Source of the DNA: a virus
Length of the DNA: 43,965 bases
Virus record (IMG/VR): IMGVR_UViG_3300047494_000177
Coordinates: 1-43,965 of that record
Strand: one strand, 5' to 3'
The notes under the pieces: model-generated
Told to the model about the DNA's origin: nothing
The model's database searches: none
What the model saw: only the letters and a program-made list of their open reading frames with translations
Position numbers and translations under genes: made by a program
Shown here: one piece after another, positions 20,799-40,103 of the stretch
Layout of the letters: each line of letters begins with the position of its first letter
How positions within the stretch are numbered: position 1 is the stretch's first letter

Positions 20799-23700
20799 GT
20801 GCCTGATAACTCGATCCCCGACAATCACCCGCTGCTGCTGAAGAATTTGCTTCCCGCGAATCAAAAGCAGCAGACCAGCGACGCCCAGTACCTGCAGAGC
20901 AGCATCCGGACGATCGACGGATTTGGCCGCCACGGCGCGAAGCACCGGCCGTTCAACTACCACCGCGCGATCAGCGCGTTCGGCAGCTGGGCGTACAAGG
21001 CGACGATGATCAACGCCAAGGGCGTCGCGTCACAGCGCCTGAGGGAATATGCTCGCACCGACCGACGGGCGAAAAAGTCGCGGGATTTCAAAACCAGGTC
21101 CGCGTGGCACAAGGCTGTGTCGAGTCGCGTTGAAGCGGCCAACAAGGGCCACGACGTCGACAACTCCGTCCTGCTCTGGGAAACGCGGCCGGTTTCTCCG
21201 CAGCTCAAGCGATACCTGAACGGAGATGCACGCGGATACGCTCGGCCGTCGAAAGCGGTGATGACCAAGACCGCCGAGATGGGCGGCGACTTCGAAGAAA
21301 TCATCGAGCAGACGCCTGAGATGAAACTGCTCAGCAAGCCGAACCCGTGGATGACGGCGTTCGACTTCCCGACGTTGCTGATGATCTATCTGCAGCTGAC
21401 GGGAAACTCCTACATCCATCCGGTGATCGATCCCCGGCTCGGCGTTCCGTGCGAACTGTGGATGATGCCGCCGCAGTGGACGTCGATCATTCCCGACCGC
21501 GAGCATTTCATCGCCGGGTATGTCTACGGAAAGTCATCCGAGGTCGAGCGGAAGTTTCAGCCAGATGAGGTCATTCACTTCAAACAGCCGAACCCGAAGG
21601 ACCTTTTTTACGGGATGGGCAATGTCGAAGCGGTCTGGGATGCGCTGAATTTGCATGATGCCAAGCGGATCCAGGACACGGCCAAGTTTGAGAATCACGG
21701 CCGGCCCGACTGGCTCCTGATCGTTAAGAACGGTGCGTCGAGCGACGCGCTGGACCGGCTGGAAGAGGCAATCGACTCCAAGCTCCGCGGTGTCCGAAAC
21801 GCCGGCAAGTTCCTGACCGTCACCGGTGATGTCACCGCTCAGATGCTGAATCAGGAGATCGAGCAGATCGGCGATTCTGATGTCATCGTGGAAGAGATAG
21901 CGGCCGGCTTCGACATTCCTATCACCAAGCTGAAGGCCAACGATCCGAATCGGGCAAACGCAGAGGCTGCGGACGCGGCATGGCAGCGCGACGCTATTCT
22001 GCCGTTCTGCACGCAGAATGAAGAGACGCTGAACTCCGGATATCTGCCGCTGTTCAAGGGCAACGGCAATTCGCTGCTCGCGTATGACAACCCCGTCTCT
22101 GAAGACAAGGTCTTCGGCGTCGATCGACTGACCAAATACGTCGCCGGTGGAATCATGTCTCCGAACGAAGGGCGCGCGGAGGAAGGTCTGCCGCCTGCCG
22201 CTGGCGGCAATGATCTTCGTATCGGACGGAACTCGGTGCCTTTCGCCCGGGTGATCGATGAGAACCCCCTGGCCGGCAATGACGACGATCCGGATGGCGT
22301 CAAGAAAGCGGAGGAGCCGGATCCGGTTGCAACGGTGAATCTCACCGCGCAGCAGACCAACGACGTCCGGAACATCGTCTCTGATGTGACGCAAGGACTG
22401 ATGCCACGAGACGCCGGGCTGGCGATTCTCCAGATGACGTTCCCGATCACGGTTGAGCAAGCCGTCCAGATGATGGGATCCGCCGGAACGATTGTACCTC
22501 CGGTCGCTGGTGCTGCTGGGGGTGCCCTTGGAGGTGCTGGTGCTGGCCGGGCGGGAGTTGCGGGCGCGGCCGGGGATCAGCGAAACGCAACAACTGCCGA
22601 ACCCGTCGAGCCACCGGACACAGAGAAAACAGTCAAAGGCTTCGGCCCGCACAAATACAGCTGCGTGATGGCACCGCTGACGGGAAGCGTGGGCGATGCG
22701 ATCAAGTCAATGTCTGCGGAGATTCCGGATGATGACCTCGCCGAAGATGGCCGAGAAACCGATCCGCATGTGACGGTTCTCTACGGCCTGCACGACGAAG
22801 ATCACTCCGGAGTTGTCGCGGCGATGGCAGGTGAATCGCCGATCACACTGTCACTTGGCAAGACAAAGGTGTTTCCTGCGGATTCCGGCCGGGCAAGCGA
22901 TGTGATCGTGGCCTCGGTGCATAGCGATGATCTACATCGACTGAACGCGAAACTCCGGAAGCTGCCGCACACGAACAAATATCCGACCTACGAACCGCAT
23001 GCGACGGTCGCATACGTTAAGCCCGGCAAGGGCCAGCACTATGCCAATCGTACCGTGCACGCATCACCGGTGATGGTGAAATCTCTCGTGCATGCCGGCA
23101 AGTCTGGCCACCGCACCGAGATTGTGTTGAGCGGAATTTCGGGAACTGATGAAGCTGCCCCGGCCCCCAACAATCGCCGCAACCGCCAACGTCCTGCAGT
23201 CATTGGTCGCATGGGTACCGATGGTCTCGCTGGCCCGCTTCCTCAGGGCACTGATCTGCAGGTGATCCTGCAGCGGTATTTCAACGAACAGAAGCACGCG
23301 GTCTTGTCGGCTATGGAGAAGCAACCGGAGCTAAAGAAAAAGGAAGATGAAATTCCCCGGTTATCGCACTGGTTCAATATCCGGCAGTGGACACAAAAGC
23401 TGCTGGCCGAAGTCACACCGGTGCTGGAATCAGTAGCGACGGACGCGGCCAAAAAGATCGCGGATCAGCTGGTGGCCGCCGATGACGTGTTCTCCGTTGT
23501 CGACCGCAATCTTCCGAAGTCTGTCGCTGATCTGGCACTGAAATTCTGCGATGCGACGAATCAGACGACAGTGCTGCAGTTGGACGAGGCTAGGGATTTG
23601 CTCCGCAAGGAAATCGTTGACGGCACGTTCGCAGGTGATACGTGTGCGGAATTGGCCAATCGCGTACAGCAGGTTTTCAACGTCGCTGATACCAAACGAG

Positions 23701-23963
23701 CGACGATGATCGCCCAGACGGAGACCAGCCGGGCACTGCATGCTGCCGAGCTGCTGACCGCTAAGGAATCCGGGTTGGTGCAGAGCAAGTCTTGGCTGGC
23801 GTCTGCTGACTGCTGTGACAAGTGTGCGGAATATGCATCCAAGGGCGAGATCCCACTGGAAGAGCCGTTCGGAGTGACTTCGTATGGCGAAGTGATGTCA
23901 GCACCAGCACACCCAAACTGCCAATGTTCGCAGTTGTTGAATCTTAAGCCCAGCGTGGATTGA
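20799..23963 (+). CDS. Portal - 2H phosphoesterase - MuF fusion protein
   Basis: The product has 1054 residues from GTG 20799. Residues about 150-490 are an HK97-family portal (LLSKPNPWMTAFDFPTLLMI, LTGNSYIHPVIDP, LWMMPP). An Ala/Gly linker at about 566-592 leads to a 2H phosphoesterase domain with two HxT motifs, HVTV from His657 and HATV from His734, 77 residues apart. Residues about 830-1054 are a MuF/SPP1-gp7-like minor head domain, ending with CCDKC (1005-1009) and HPNCQC (1038-1043). Portal and MuF fusions are known; the enzyme between them is the odd part. The catalytic histidines and threonines are intact. It should sit at the portal vertex and could reach the host with the DNA. Confidence 0.9.
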   Translation: MPDNSIPDNHPLLLKNLLPANQKQQTSDAQYLQSSIRTIDGFGRHGAKHRPFNYHRAISAFGSWAYKATMINAKGVASQRLREYARTDRRAKKSRDFKTRSAWHKAVSSRVEAANKGHDVDNSVLLWETRPVSPQLKRYLNGDARGYARPSKAVMTKTAEMGGDFEEIIEQTPEMKLLSKPNPWMTAFDFPTLLMIYLQLTGNSYIHPVIDPRLGVPCELWMMPPQWTSIIPDREHFIAGYVYGKSSEVERKFQPDEVIHFKQPNPKDLFYGMGNVEAVWDALNLHDAKRIQDTAKFENHGRPDWLLIVKNGASSDALDRLEEAIDSKLRGVRNAGKFLTVTGDVTAQMLNQEIEQIGDSDVIVEEIAAGFDIPITKLKANDPNRANAEAADAAWQRDAILPFCTQNEETLNSGYLPLFKGNGNSLLAYDNPVSEDKVFGVDRLTKYVAGGIMSPNEGRAEEGLPPAAGGNDLRIGRNSVPFARVIDENPLAGNDDDPDGVKKAEEPDPVATVNLTAQQTNDVRNIVSDVTQGLMPRDAGLAILQMTFPITVEQAVQMMGSAGTIVPPVAGAAGGALGGAGAGRAGVAGAAGDQRNATTAEPVEPPDTEKTVKGFGPHKYSCVMAPLTGSVGDAIKSMSAEIPDDDLAEDGRETDPHVTVLYGLHDEDHSGVVAAMAGESPITLSLGKTKVFPADSGRASDVIVASVHSDDLHRLNAKLRKLPHTNKYPTYEPHATVAYVKPGKGQHYANRTVHASPVMVKSLVHAGKSGHRTEIVLSGISGTDEAAPAPNNRRNRQRPAVIGRMGTDGLAGPLPQGTDLQVILQRYFNEQKHAVLSAMEKQPELKKKEDEIPRLSHWFNIRQWTQKLLAEVTPVLESVATDAAKKIADQLVAADDVFSVVDRNLPKSVADLALKFCDATNQTTVLQLDEARDLLRKEIVDGTFAGDTCAELANRVQQVFNVADTKRATMIAQTETSRALHAAELLTAKESGLVQSKSWLASADCCDKCAEYASKGEIPLEEPFGVTSYGEVMSAPAHPNCQCSQLLNLKPSVD

Positions 23964-37758: not shown

Positions 37759-38661
37759 ATGGGCTTTAAAGCAACCATCACCGAAGTCGTCAACCAAGGA
37801 TTCTACGTCGCCACCCGCACCAGCCAGCAATACCGGCGCGTCTGGCTCGTCGAAGGACTTCCTCCCAACTGGGGATATATATCGCTACAGGGCGCGACCG
37901 ATCCCGCGTCAGGGATAACGATCCCAACGATCGGCGATTTGCTGACGGGAGTACCAAATACCAATTTGATCTTCCCGATTACATGTAGCAACGTTCGGGG
38001 CGAGCCATTCCCTCGCGATTCCAAAACGTCCGCACACGCAATCGTTGATTTCACTACACCAGACGGCGGCGGCGACCCAAACATCACCGTCATCGAGATA
38101 GGAGACAGCAACGGCAACACAACGATGCAGTACAACGCCCAGACCGGGCAAGTGCTGTCTGTCAGCTACCAAGCCGATGCCGGTGCGAGCGGCATTCTGC
38201 CACCACTACAGAATGACGTAGTGGCAATTCCGGTTCTGAGTCCGAACACCATCCTGCGGTTTACGAAAACGTTCACTTCATGCCCGCTTGCGCTGAGCAT
38301 TCAGTATCGAAGAAAACTGAATGCGACCACATGGCAAGGCTGCCCGCCGTCAACAGTGCTTTGCCGCGGGTTCAGTGCAATTTCAACGCTCGGTGGCGCT
38401 GCGTTTCGCGGAACGCTGGCGTTCGAGATCGCGCCGCCGGTTCCAACCGGTTCTCCGGCAGCAAAATATGGATTTGGCCCGTGGACGCGGGTTGAGTTTT
38501 TCAGAGATCACATCAGCGGTCAGATTCCGCCTGATATTTTGGCGAAATATGTTGCCGGGACATTCCCGGGCCCATTTGACGGGAGCACAGGAATTCTTGT
38601 GGCCAATCCGTACGCGACGGCTGAATTCAATGCACTGGGTCTGCCAACGGTTGCGTCGTAG
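37759..38661 (+). CDS. Large virion-like protein of unknown family
   Basis: The product has 300 residues. It is beta-rich (FKATITEVVNQGFYVATRTS, YRRVWLVEGLPPNWGYISLQ, NGNTTMQYNAQTGQVLSVSY) with a helical end. It could be a distal tail or surface protein. The ATG lies immediately after a terminator's T run, with no ribosome binding site between, so expression should need read-through or another start. The gene ends 35 nt into the reverse-strand gene that follows (convergent). Confidence 0.55.
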   Translation: MGFKATITEVVNQGFYVATRTSQQYRRVWLVEGLPPNWGYISLQGATDPASGITIPTIGDLLTGVPNTNLIFPITCSNVRGEPFPRDSKTSAHAIVDFTTPDGGGDPNITVIEIGDSNGNTTMQYNAQTGQVLSVSYQADAGASGILPPLQNDVVAIPVLSPNTILRFTKTFTSCPLALSIQYRRKLNATTWQGCPPSTVLCRGFSAISTLGGAAFRGTLAFEIAPPVPTGSPAAKYGFGPWTRVEFFRDHISGQIPPDILAKYVAGTFPGPFDGSTGILVANPYATAEFNALGLPTVAS

Positions 38662-39127
38662 GGGATTCAGCGGACGACGGCGGCAATCCTGGGGTAGTTC
38701 GAACATAAGGCTCCAGCTTCAGCTGTGCCGACACCTGTTGAACCGCCTGCACAAACCGGCCATCAACTTCGATGTATCGATCATGCTGCGATTTCTGTTC
38801 CTCTGAAAGCTGTGCGACATCGACTTCCATGTTGCGATAATGGCCGCGAAGCATCGCCCGCCGATGCTGATGCACCTTCAAGTGGTTGTACTGCGATGCC
38901 TCTGCATCGGTTAGAAGTTTGATCCCCTTCTTATGCGTAACGACGGTGATGTTCCTGCCGGCGTTCCGCAGGTCGCGGGATAACCGCTGCTGTACTGCCA
39001 TCAGCTTCAACGCGTAAGACTCTGTGTTTCGACGAACGCCAACGATCTTCTCGATTTGATTTACCGGGATCAGATCGCCTTTGTTCAGTTTGTCGAGGTC
39101 GAATGGATAACGATTTGCTTCACTCAT
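38627..39127 (-). CDS. Reverse-strand accessory protein A (repeat-array leader)
   Basis: The product has 166 residues; ATG 39125-39127 has AGGAGA upstream, and a longer frame runs back into the repeat array and is rejected. The protein begins SEANRYPFDLDKLNKGDLIP and has long helices (NTESYALKLMAVQQRLSRDL) with a beta strand ITVVTHKKGIKLLTD and a Pro/Ser-rich end. Similar phage proteins of unknown function come to mind, but no domain can be named. Its leader has the same layout as that of gene B. Confidence 0.6.
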   Translation of the reverse strand: MSEANRYPFDLDKLNKGDLIPVNQIEKIVGVRRNTESYALKLMAVQQRLSRDLRNAGRNITVVTHKKGIKLLTDAEASQYNHLKVHQHRRAMLRGHYRNMEVDVAQLSEEQKSQHDRYIEVDGRFVQAVQQVSAQLKLEPYVRTTPGLPPSSAESPTTQPLADPVH

Positions 39128-39145
39128 AACTGTCTCCTGATAACT

Positions 39146-39159
39146 GTCCCCTAAGGGAC
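39146..39159 (-). promoter_or_regulatory. Leader hairpin of gene A
   Basis: On the reverse strand GTCCC pairs with GGGAC over a TTAG loop (5 bp, 4 nt). The element directly follows CCAAGG (39160-39165) and precedes the ribosome binding site. The leader of gene B has a hairpin of the same size at the same distance but with different stem bases, so the pairing rather than the sequence is kept. Confidence 0.65.
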
Positions 39160-39168
39160 CCTTGGATT

Positions 39169-39221
39169 GCCATTCCGTGCAACGCCCCGCCGCGCCAAGC
39201 CGCGCCTGGCCGTGCCTTGCC
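39169..39221 (-). repeat. Phased pentanucleotide repeat array, 11 units (leader of gene A)
   Basis: On the + strand, GCC cores start at 39169, 39184, 39189, 39194, 39199, 39204, 39209, 39214 and 39219, with TCC and GCA filling 39174 and 39179: 11 units in exact 5-nt phase. The two bases between cores vary freely. In gene sense this reads GGC every 5 nt. The array ends 3 nt from CCAAGG. A period of 5 is not compatible with coding. Confidence 0.8.
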
Positions 39222-39234
39222 CGACATTGAATCA

Positions 39235-39798
39235 TCACACAATCTCAAACCGCCCAAACTTGGGCGTGTAATTTCCGAGCCCGATGATGCGGCCGGCGGT
39301 GGTCACCGCATCGATAACGTTTGACTCGTTGAGCAAATCAGGCAGGTAGTCGATGGTGAATTTCAGTGACCATGACCGGAAGATCGGACGTGTTCGGATG
39401 ACCGTCGATGTCCCGATCTTAACTCCGCGACGGTCAACGAAACGCTTGTCTTTCCAGAGATCTTCAACGGTTTTTGGTCCGTCATATTCAATGATCCACA
39501 ACCCGTCAGAAATGACGCCAGCCTTGAACGGCTCGCCAAGCTTTTGTTTCTTTCCGGCCTCCACCAGCATTGATTCCAAATTCCCACCAGGAATCACCGG
39601 ACGAATCTTCTCGTCCAGATATAGGCCGCCGAAGAACTCGATTTTTCCCAAAGCTTCGTAATCGTCGTCGGTCTTTTTTCGCTTGCCGCTTATCGCCTTC
39701 ATATCTCTGGCGTACTTGTTGAGCGGATCAGCAAGCTGACCGTTGTGAACGAGAAGAGGGGATACGCCGCGAATGTGAAACTTCAGATTCTTGTACAT
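39235..39798 (-). CDS. Reverse-strand accessory protein B, possible RAMP-like fold
   Basis: The product has 187 residues; ATG 39796-39798 has TAGGAG upstream. It begins YKNLKFHIRGVSPLLVHNGQ. PVIPGGNLESMLVEAGKKQK and the end AGRIIGLGNYTPKFGRFEIV are well known to me as features of a widespread phage protein family of unknown function. The first strand, the PG(G)xL helix and the Gly-rich end resemble RAMP (Cas5/Cas7-type) domains; this is only a fold guess. It is the gene behind the longest leader in the window (array, hairpin, structured RNA). Confidence 0.65.
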   Translation of the reverse strand: MYKNLKFHIRGVSPLLVHNGQLADPLNKYARDMKAISGKRKKTDDDYEALGKIEFFGGLYLDEKIRPVIPGGNLESMLVEAGKKQKLGEPFKAGVISDGLWIIEYDGPKTVEDLWKDKRFVDRRGVKIGTSTVIRTRPIFRSWSLKFTIDYLPDLLNESNVIDAVTTAGRIIGLGNYTPKFGRFEIV

Positions 39799-39822
39799 GA
39801 TCGAAACTCCTAAAAATGTTCT

Positions 39823-39836
39823 GCGTCCGAAGACGC
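39823..39836 (-). promoter_or_regulatory. Leader hairpin of gene B with a UUCG tetraloop
   Basis: On the reverse strand GCGTC pairs with GACGC over TTCG, giving the very stable C(UUCG)G cap. It directly follows CCAAGG (39837-39842). The + strand would have a CGAA loop, so the hairpin argues for function in reverse-strand RNA, in the sense of gene B. Confidence 0.7.
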
Positions 39837-39845
39837 CCTTGGTTG

Positions 39846-39908
39846 GCCTTGCCTCGCCCGGCCTAGCCCAGCCATGTCGCGCCGAGCCCTGCTATGCCAG
39901 GCCGCGCT
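39846..39908 (-). repeat. Phased pentanucleotide repeat array, 13 units (leader of gene B)
   Basis: On the + strand, GCC or one-base variants start every 5 nt from 39846 to 39906 (GTC at 39876, GCT at 39891 and 39906, GCC at the other ten). As in gene A, the array begins exactly 3 nt from CCAAGG, which itself abuts the hairpin. Spacer bases differ between the two arrays, so this is not a recent duplication of one DNA segment. Confidence 0.85.
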
Positions 39909-39933
39909 GGGACACGCATTGCGAGTATTAAAA

Positions 39934-40043
39934 GTCCCCGCGTGCAGGTTGTTACCCGTCGATGAGGACGCGCTGCACGGGGGACGAGGATCGTTGTGTC
40001 GTTGGGGTTCCGACGGGTAACAGCATTCCCATCGTCGAACCCC
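39934..40043. ncRNA. Candidate structured RNA: two hairpins with kissing loops
   Basis: Stem 1: 39934-39947 pairs with 39973-39985 (13 bp, one bulged G). Stem 3: 40004-40010 pairs with 40037-40043 (7 bp, extendable to 10 with a bulge). The first 14 nt of loop 1 (39948-39961) are complementary to the first 14 nt of loop 3 (40011-40024), 11 of them without a break (GTTACCCGTCG with CGACGGGTAAC). So the loops can kiss, or the strand can switch between folds. It fills the 305-nt gap before gene B. Which strand is transcribed is not settled; one G-T wobble favours +, neighbouring genes favour -. Confidence 0.65.
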
Positions 40044-40103
40044 CGGCTAAAACTTAACGTCTCTTGAATAAAAATTTCGTAGCTGCTGTAACCTGCGTTC
40101 CAG

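What the first reader, a model, noticed from the sequence alone, without database searches (positions are those of the whole stretch)
39125..39908. Twin leaders: 5-nt phased GGC arrays, CCAAGG and a 5-bp hairpin at identical spacing
Two adjacent reverse-strand genes (39127 and 39798) have leaders of the same design: an array of GGC cores in strict 5-nt phase (11 and 13 units), exactly 3 nt, CCAAGG, directly a 14-nt hairpin (5 bp, 4-nt loop), then the ribosome binding site and ATG. Stem bases differ (GTCCC/GGGAC against GCGTC/GACGC) while pairing is kept, and one loop is UUCG on the reverse strand. Array spacer bases also differ. This is seen directly. A role as an RNA or DNA element that is bound by a phage protein, or that controls translation, is inference; the arrays cannot be coding (period 5).
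Basis: seen in the sequence. Interest (0 to 1): 0.85.

Follow-up and report, generated by a model that had tools for sequence, protein, structure and literature searches.

The report
Phage VIPR locus with guide-RNA leaders
The two odd repeat leaders are almost certainly two guide RNAs of VIPR, a recently described phage-borne RNA-guided DNA-binding system related to CRISPR, here placed directly in front of the protein genes they appear to serve.

Summary
The best 60-nt frame in 300 shuffles never exceeded 6 GGC.

The locus is a VIPR system (Viral Interference Programmable Repeat; preprint PMC13142463, 2026). Gene 39235-39798 is a Vipr homologue: phmmer E 2e-30 to the solved SUSP1 Vipr (PDB 36pp), and its AlphaFold model (pLDDT 95) matches Csm3/Cas7-type CRISPR proteins. 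The leaders match vrRNAs: 9-16 GGY/NN repeats plus a structured 3' tail. Gene 38627-39127 is the probable accessory protein (Vap). Searching viral contigs by array sequence alone returned 29 loci, 18 encoding a Vipr homologue; 0 of 19 control loci do.

By the published 1-nt-skip code I decoded both guides; no target was found above chance, and the host is unknown.

Verdict: new member of a known, very recent kind. Unusual: each guide RNA is the immediate 5' leader of vipr or vap, a layout repeated in L021 and partly in L015 and L012. Whether the leaders also regulate translation is untested.

The parts
39235..39798 (-). vipr: 187-aa RAMP-fold protein, homologue of SUSP1 Vipr
   Evidence: phmmer to PDB 36pp_D 'SUSP1 Vipr protein' E 2.2e-30 over residues 4-186; family profile E 3.4e-70; phrog_4652 E 4.6e-54; AlphaFold pLDDT 95 with Foldseek hits to Csm3/Cas7
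39844..39903 (-). vrRNA 1, guide array in the vipr leader: 12 phased units, guide dinucleotides CT AT AG TC GC AT TG TA CG GA AA CA
   Evidence: assignment as vrRNA by homology to the repeats in PMC13142463
39823..39843 (-). vrRNA 1, 3' tail: A-CCAAGG + hairpin GCGTC-TTCG-GACGC
   Evidence: sequence; fold -8.1 kcal/mol; same tail form in L021 and L027
39807..39811 (-). ribosome binding site (AGGAG) of vipr
   Evidence: sequence
38627..39127 (-). probable vap (VIPR accessory protein), 166 aa, predicted winged-helix N-terminal half
   Evidence: position directly after vipr; homologue at the same place in L015 (phmmer E 1e-16); profile match to the second genes of other VIPR loci, hhalign P 2e-4, probability 45%; model pLDDT 67 with E-H-H-E-E winged-helix order
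39167..39221 (-). vrRNA 2, guide array in the vap leader: 11 phased units, guide dinucleotides AA AC CA GC TT GC GG GT AC AT AA
39146..39166 (-). vrRNA 2, 3' tail: T-CCAAGG + hairpin GTCCC-TTAG-GGGAC
   Evidence: sequence; fold
39134..39138 (-). ribosome binding site (AGGAG) of the probable vap
   Evidence: sequence
39904..40045 (-). strongly structured RNA segment just upstream of vrRNA 1 (two long hairpins, the second followed by TTTTAATA); possible terminator of the upstream operon or processing element
   Evidence: fold -57.6 kcal/mol, z -2.6; not called by the terminator scan; no Rfam family above its gathering score

Best explanation
The region is a VIPR locus of a tailed phage. The gene at 39235-39798 makes Vipr, a single-RRM RAMP protein that oligomerises on a guide RNA. 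Each leader is transcribed as a vrRNA: the GGC triplets are the invariant scaffold read by successive Vipr subunits, the two variable bases between them are the guide, and the CCAAGG-hairpin is the 3' tail (handle). By the published rule the guide dinucleotides pair with double-stranded DNA with one skipped base between dinucleotides, and the complex represses transcription of a competing phage, satellite or prophage. The gene at 38627-39127 is the accessory (Vap) protein, probably a DNA-binding winged-helix protein. Shown here: arrays, tails, homology of Vipr, its predicted fold, and genomic association of arrays with vipr. Inferred from homology: RNA binding, DNA recognition by the 1-nt skip code, repression. 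Unknown: the targets, the host, how the vrRNAs are separated from the vipr and vap mRNAs, and whether the leaders also regulate those genes.
For: Single-sequence phmmer of the window protein to solved SUSP1 Vipr, E 2.2e-30, full length; profile E 3.4e-70. High-confidence model whose best PDB matches are Csm3/Cas7-type RAMPs (36pp itself was not among the hits shown). Arrays fit the published vrRNA definition of 9-16 YNNGG repeats with conserved GGY and variable NN, plus a structured 3' tail. Independent association: 29 viral loci fetched by an array+CCAAGG DNA pattern alone, 18 of them encoding a Vipr homologue detected with an HMM built only from proteins found by other routes, 0 of 19 control loci; 112 strict arrays in vipr loci, none in control loci. 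Tail hairpin kept with different stems in six tails: GCGTC/GACGC, GTCCC/GGGAC (window), GCTAC/GTAGC, GCTGC/GCAGC (L027), GGAC/GTCC, GGCC/GGCC (L021).
Against: No target could be found for either guide: no exact match of 9 dinucleotides in IMG/VR, none in the window itself, half-guide hits did not extend, and one 10-of-11 dinucleotide match in GTDB genomes is at chance level. No expression data. The tail is shorter than the SUSP1 tail, for which the preprint predicts a pseudoknot. Two units in each array are imperfect (AGC, GAC; TGC, GGA). The Vap assignment rests on position and a weak profile match.
Confidence: 0.93

Rival explanations
1. The leaders are mainly cis-regulatory: Vipr binds the array in the 5' leader of its own and the vap mRNA and blocks the adjacent ribosome binding site (a translational repressor, as TRAP binds phased triplets), with no DNA targeting.
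For: Each array-tail ends about 25 nt or less before the start codon, with the RBS between; the same leader layout recurs for vap and vipr in L021 and in part in L015 and L012.
Against: Many arrays in relatives stand away from start codons (only 31 of 112 are followed by an RBS and start within 90 nt); the spacer dinucleotides differ freely between arrays, as expected of guides and not of a fixed operator; the homologue SUSP1 uses such RNAs to find DNA (PMC13142463).
Confidence: 0.05
2. The arrays are vrRNAs and also autoregulate: co-transcribed leader vrRNAs must be cut from, or are bound on, the vipr and vap mRNAs, so guide production and protein production are coupled. (An extension of the best explanation, not exclusive of it.)
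For: No terminator-like site on the minus strand lies between tail and start codon in either leader, so vrRNA and mRNA are probably one transcript; array B starts 14 nt after the vipr stop codon.
Against: No transcript data; a promoter inside the array-tail region or rapid processing would uncouple them.
Confidence: 0.25
3. The arrays are DNA-level repeats (recombination or replication sites, or cassette ends) unconnected with RNA.
For: In several phages arrays flank the vipr-vap pair on both sides (wV8, LittleE, MakoManhole).
Against: Arrays run on the coding strand of vipr in the loci examined closely; a tail hairpin follows at the 3' side; such RNAs are reported to co-purify with Vipr (PMC13142463).
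Confidence: 0.02

Closest known systems
VIPR systems (Vipr, vrRNA, Vap), Escherichia phage SUSP1 and Pseudomonas fulva prophage; PMC13142463, bioRxiv 2026.04.26.720920
   Same: Homologous Vipr; two-gene vipr-vap cassette in a phage; GGY/NN pentamer arrays of 9-16 units with a structured 3' tail, one upstream of vipr
   Different: Both vrRNAs are the immediate leaders of vipr and of the probable vap; short CCAAGG-hairpin tail instead of the SUSP1 pseudoknot tail; no downstream vrRNA array found; the Vap is only remotely similar to the second genes of the SUSP1-like loci. The VIPR type could not be assigned (supplement not readable here)
Class 1 CRISPR RAMPs (Cas7/Csm3)
   Same: RAMP (RRM) fold by model comparison, RNA-guided filament logic by inference
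   Different: No CRISPR array, no cas genes found, 5-nt instead of 6-nt period, gapped guide
TRAP and its 11 (G/U)AG triplets
   Same: Phased triplet array in an mRNA leader close to start codons
   Different: Recalled from general knowledge: TRAP is a different protein family, and its spacers are not guides; no TRAP-like match was seen here

Membership tests
VIPR | Vipr protein (single-RRM RAMP homologue) | tested here: met
   phmmer E 2.2e-30 to SUSP1 Vipr 36pp_D; RAMP fold
VIPR | vrRNA of 9-16 tandem GGY/NN pentamers with variable NN | tested here: met
   12 and 11 units, 10 and 9 exact GGC, variable NN; two degenerate cores in each
VIPR | structured 3' tail after the array | tested here: met
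   5-bp hairpin in both leaders; stems that differ while pairing is kept in L021 and L027; no pseudoknot looked for
VIPR | minimal locus: vipr plus one vap gene, mostly in viral or proviral genomes | tested here: met
   vipr followed by a 166-aa gene; virus record. Vap identity itself only probable
VIPR | vrRNA expressed and bound by Vipr | not testable with these tools
   needs small-RNA sequencing and pull-down
VIPR | guide matches a target by the 1-nt skip rule | tested here: inconclusive
   no target above chance in IMG/VR, GTDB representatives or 246 genomes of one phylum
CRISPR-Cas class 1 | repeat-spacer CRISPR array and multi-gene cas operon | tested here: not met
   tandem repeat scan shows no CRISPR-like array; none of the proteins scanned matched a Cas family, though not every ORF of the window was scanned

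The most novel reading that the evidence does not exclude
A VIPR variant in which the guide RNAs are built into the 5' leaders of both vipr and vap, so that loading of Vipr on the leader, or excision of the vrRNA from it, sets the level of the two proteins: a self-tuning guide-RNA operon not described in the main text of the VIPR preprint.
Probability: 0.25. Interest if true: 0.6.

Novelty: new member of a known kind. Interest (0 to 1): 0.42.

Why it matters
VIPR is a months-old, preprint-level system proposed as an ancestor of CRISPR effectors. This locus adds a divergent member (Vipr about 34% identical to the Felixounavirus relatives of the SUSP1 system) with a compact layout, shows that guide arrays are detectable from raw sequence alone, and poses a clear question the preprint's main text does not raise: how a guide RNA placed directly before a ribosome binding site is produced, and whether it regulates its own operon.

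Tried and rejected
TRAP-like operator and transposon or cassette-end readings were considered first and dropped once the Vipr match appeared. Target searches: 9-dinucleotide cores of both guides in IMG/VR gave none; up to 3 mismatches within the window none; a 10-dinucleotide pattern of guide B in GTDB representatives gave one match in a Planctomycetaceae MAG. It lies inside a chromosomal gene that looks like an ABC-transporter permease (my reading), the 11th dinucleotide fails, the skipped base is not at the wobble position, and about 0.5 such matches are expected by chance (my estimate from collection size), so it is rejected as a target. Half-guide seeds gave 3 and 7 loci; the best extend to 20 of 22-24 bases, which is unremarkable when 16 were fixed by the seed. 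A 2-mismatch search of 246 genomes of that phylum gave 0 for guide A, and for guide B one (the same site) against one control match. Host: the capsid has only 36-38% relatives in that phylum and the terminase matches phages of many hosts; unresolved. Vap: no relatives in phages or IMG/VR by direct search, weak structure matches only. Rfam gave nothing at its gathering score in the region.

Full report
OBSERVATION. Reading the minus strand confirms the description almost to the base. Both leaders have arrays in strict 5-nt phase, an apparent 3-nt gap, CCAAGG, a 14-nt hairpin of 5 bp with a 4-nt loop, AGGAG and ATG. Ten of twelve cores in leader A and nine of eleven in leader B are exactly GGC. 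The 3-nt gap is not a separate spacer: it is the last NN plus the first base of an in-phase NCC-AA unit, so the register runs unbroken into GG and the hairpin. In a 12-unit frame the window's best count is 10; outside the region it is 4, and 300 dinucleotide-preserving shuffles never exceed 6.

IDENTITY. The first gene has no Pfam match and matches a PHROG of unknown function, but relatives at 34-43% identity occur in Felixounavirus, Pseudomonas, Gordonia and Mycobacterium phages, usually followed by a second small gene. Arrays of GGC, or mostly GGT in Felixounavirus, lie next to it in most of them. A profile of the family matched one solved protein convincingly, 36pp 'SUSP1 Vipr protein', at E 3.4e-70, and the single window sequence does so at E 2.2e-30. 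The 2026 preprint behind that name describes VIPR: Vipr, a RAMP protein; vrRNAs of 9-16 GGY/NN repeats with a structured 3' tail; a vap accessory gene; and gapped DNA recognition in which NN dinucleotides pair with one skipped base between them. The model of the window protein has mean pLDDT 95, and its PDB matches are Csm3/Cas7-type CRISPR subunits.

ASSOCIATION. A scan of IMG/VR with only the array+CCAAGG DNA pattern returned 29 stretches. An HMM built from Vipr homologues found by other routes detects a Vipr homologue in 18 of these 29 and in none of 19 control loci; several of the 29 are short or are copies of one array, so they are not 29 independent cases. Strict arrays number 112 in the vipr loci counted and 0 in the controls. 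Part of the vipr set was fetched by array, so the cleanest numbers are those.

ANATOMY COMPARED. L021 (Vipr 32% identical) has seven arrays. The ones before vipr and before vap end in ACCAAGG, a short hairpin and then RBS and ATG, the same twin-leader design as here; its other arrays have long-hairpin tails. L027 has array, CCAAGG and hairpins GCTAC/GTAGC and GCTGC/GCAGC. L015, which carries homologues of both window genes (39% and about 30%), has one array before vipr and three between vipr and vap; its tails are GG + hairpin without CCAAGG. So array plus hairpin tail is general, CCAAGG is a clade trait, and leader placement recurs.

SECOND GENE. It is an orphan by direct search but has a homologue in L015 at the equivalent place. 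Its profile aligns collinearly with the second genes of other VIPR loci (hhalign P 2e-4, probability 45%), and its model, of moderate confidence, has a winged-helix order of elements. Vap is therefore probable, not proven.

GUIDES AND TARGETS. Decoded guides are CT AT AG TC GC AT TG TA CG GA AA CA (leader A) and AA AC CA GC TT GC GG GT AC AT AA (leader B). No convincing target was found. The collections hold few hosts or competitors of an environmental phage, so this is inconclusive and does not count strongly against the assignment.

MECHANISM. By homology, Vipr subunits line up on the GGC scaffold, expose the NN dinucleotides, and hold the complex on matching double-stranded DNA to repress a competitor. 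Because no terminator-like site on the minus strand separates tail from start codon, each vrRNA is probably part of the mRNA leader at some stage. Coupling between guide production and translation is the open and testable point here; the main text of the preprint does not mention leaders, UTRs or translation.

VERDICT. The kind is already described, in a preprint only months old; this is a divergent member with an unusual compact layout. New member of a known kind, interest 0.42.

Noticed in passing
L010 (Mycobacterium phage LittleE) 2219-2285, 2354-2420, 3686-3740, 3815-3884: Four vrRNA-like arrays are each followed by a short hairpin and then a truncated tRNA-like element (acceptor-type stem enclosing a T-arm with GTTCGANTC loop), so vrRNA ends might be set by tRNA-processing enzymes. 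Not called by ARAGORN or Rfam; sequence; three of the four fold with the T-arm inside the acceptor-type stem, though folding energies are not exceptional against shuffles. The preprint's main text does not mention tRNA.
   Followed up: partly
L009 (MakoManhole) and L011 (prophiBWHA-1) leaders: Similar T-arm-like fragments lie next to GGY arrays upstream of the vipr gene.
   Followed up: partly
window 39904-40045 (-): Two long stable hairpins directly upstream of vrRNA 1, the second (GTCCCCCGTGCAG...CTGCACGCGGGGAC) followed by TTTTAATA; z -2.6.
   Followed up: partly
L030, L031, L036, L041: Viral contigs with very many arrays (8 to 25 strict arrays per locus), more than the four vrRNAs of the SUSP1 locus.
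   Followed up: no
L008 (Escherichia phage wV8) 2756-2813 and 4149-4206: Annotated direct repeat DR_4 flanks the vipr-vap pair next to its arrays; it probably contains the shared vrRNA tail.
   Followed up: partly
window 20799-23963 (+): A 1054-aa ORF matches portal protein, an RNA ligase family and head morphogenesis in different parts: an unusual fusion, or an effect of assembly or an inserted element.
   Followed up: no
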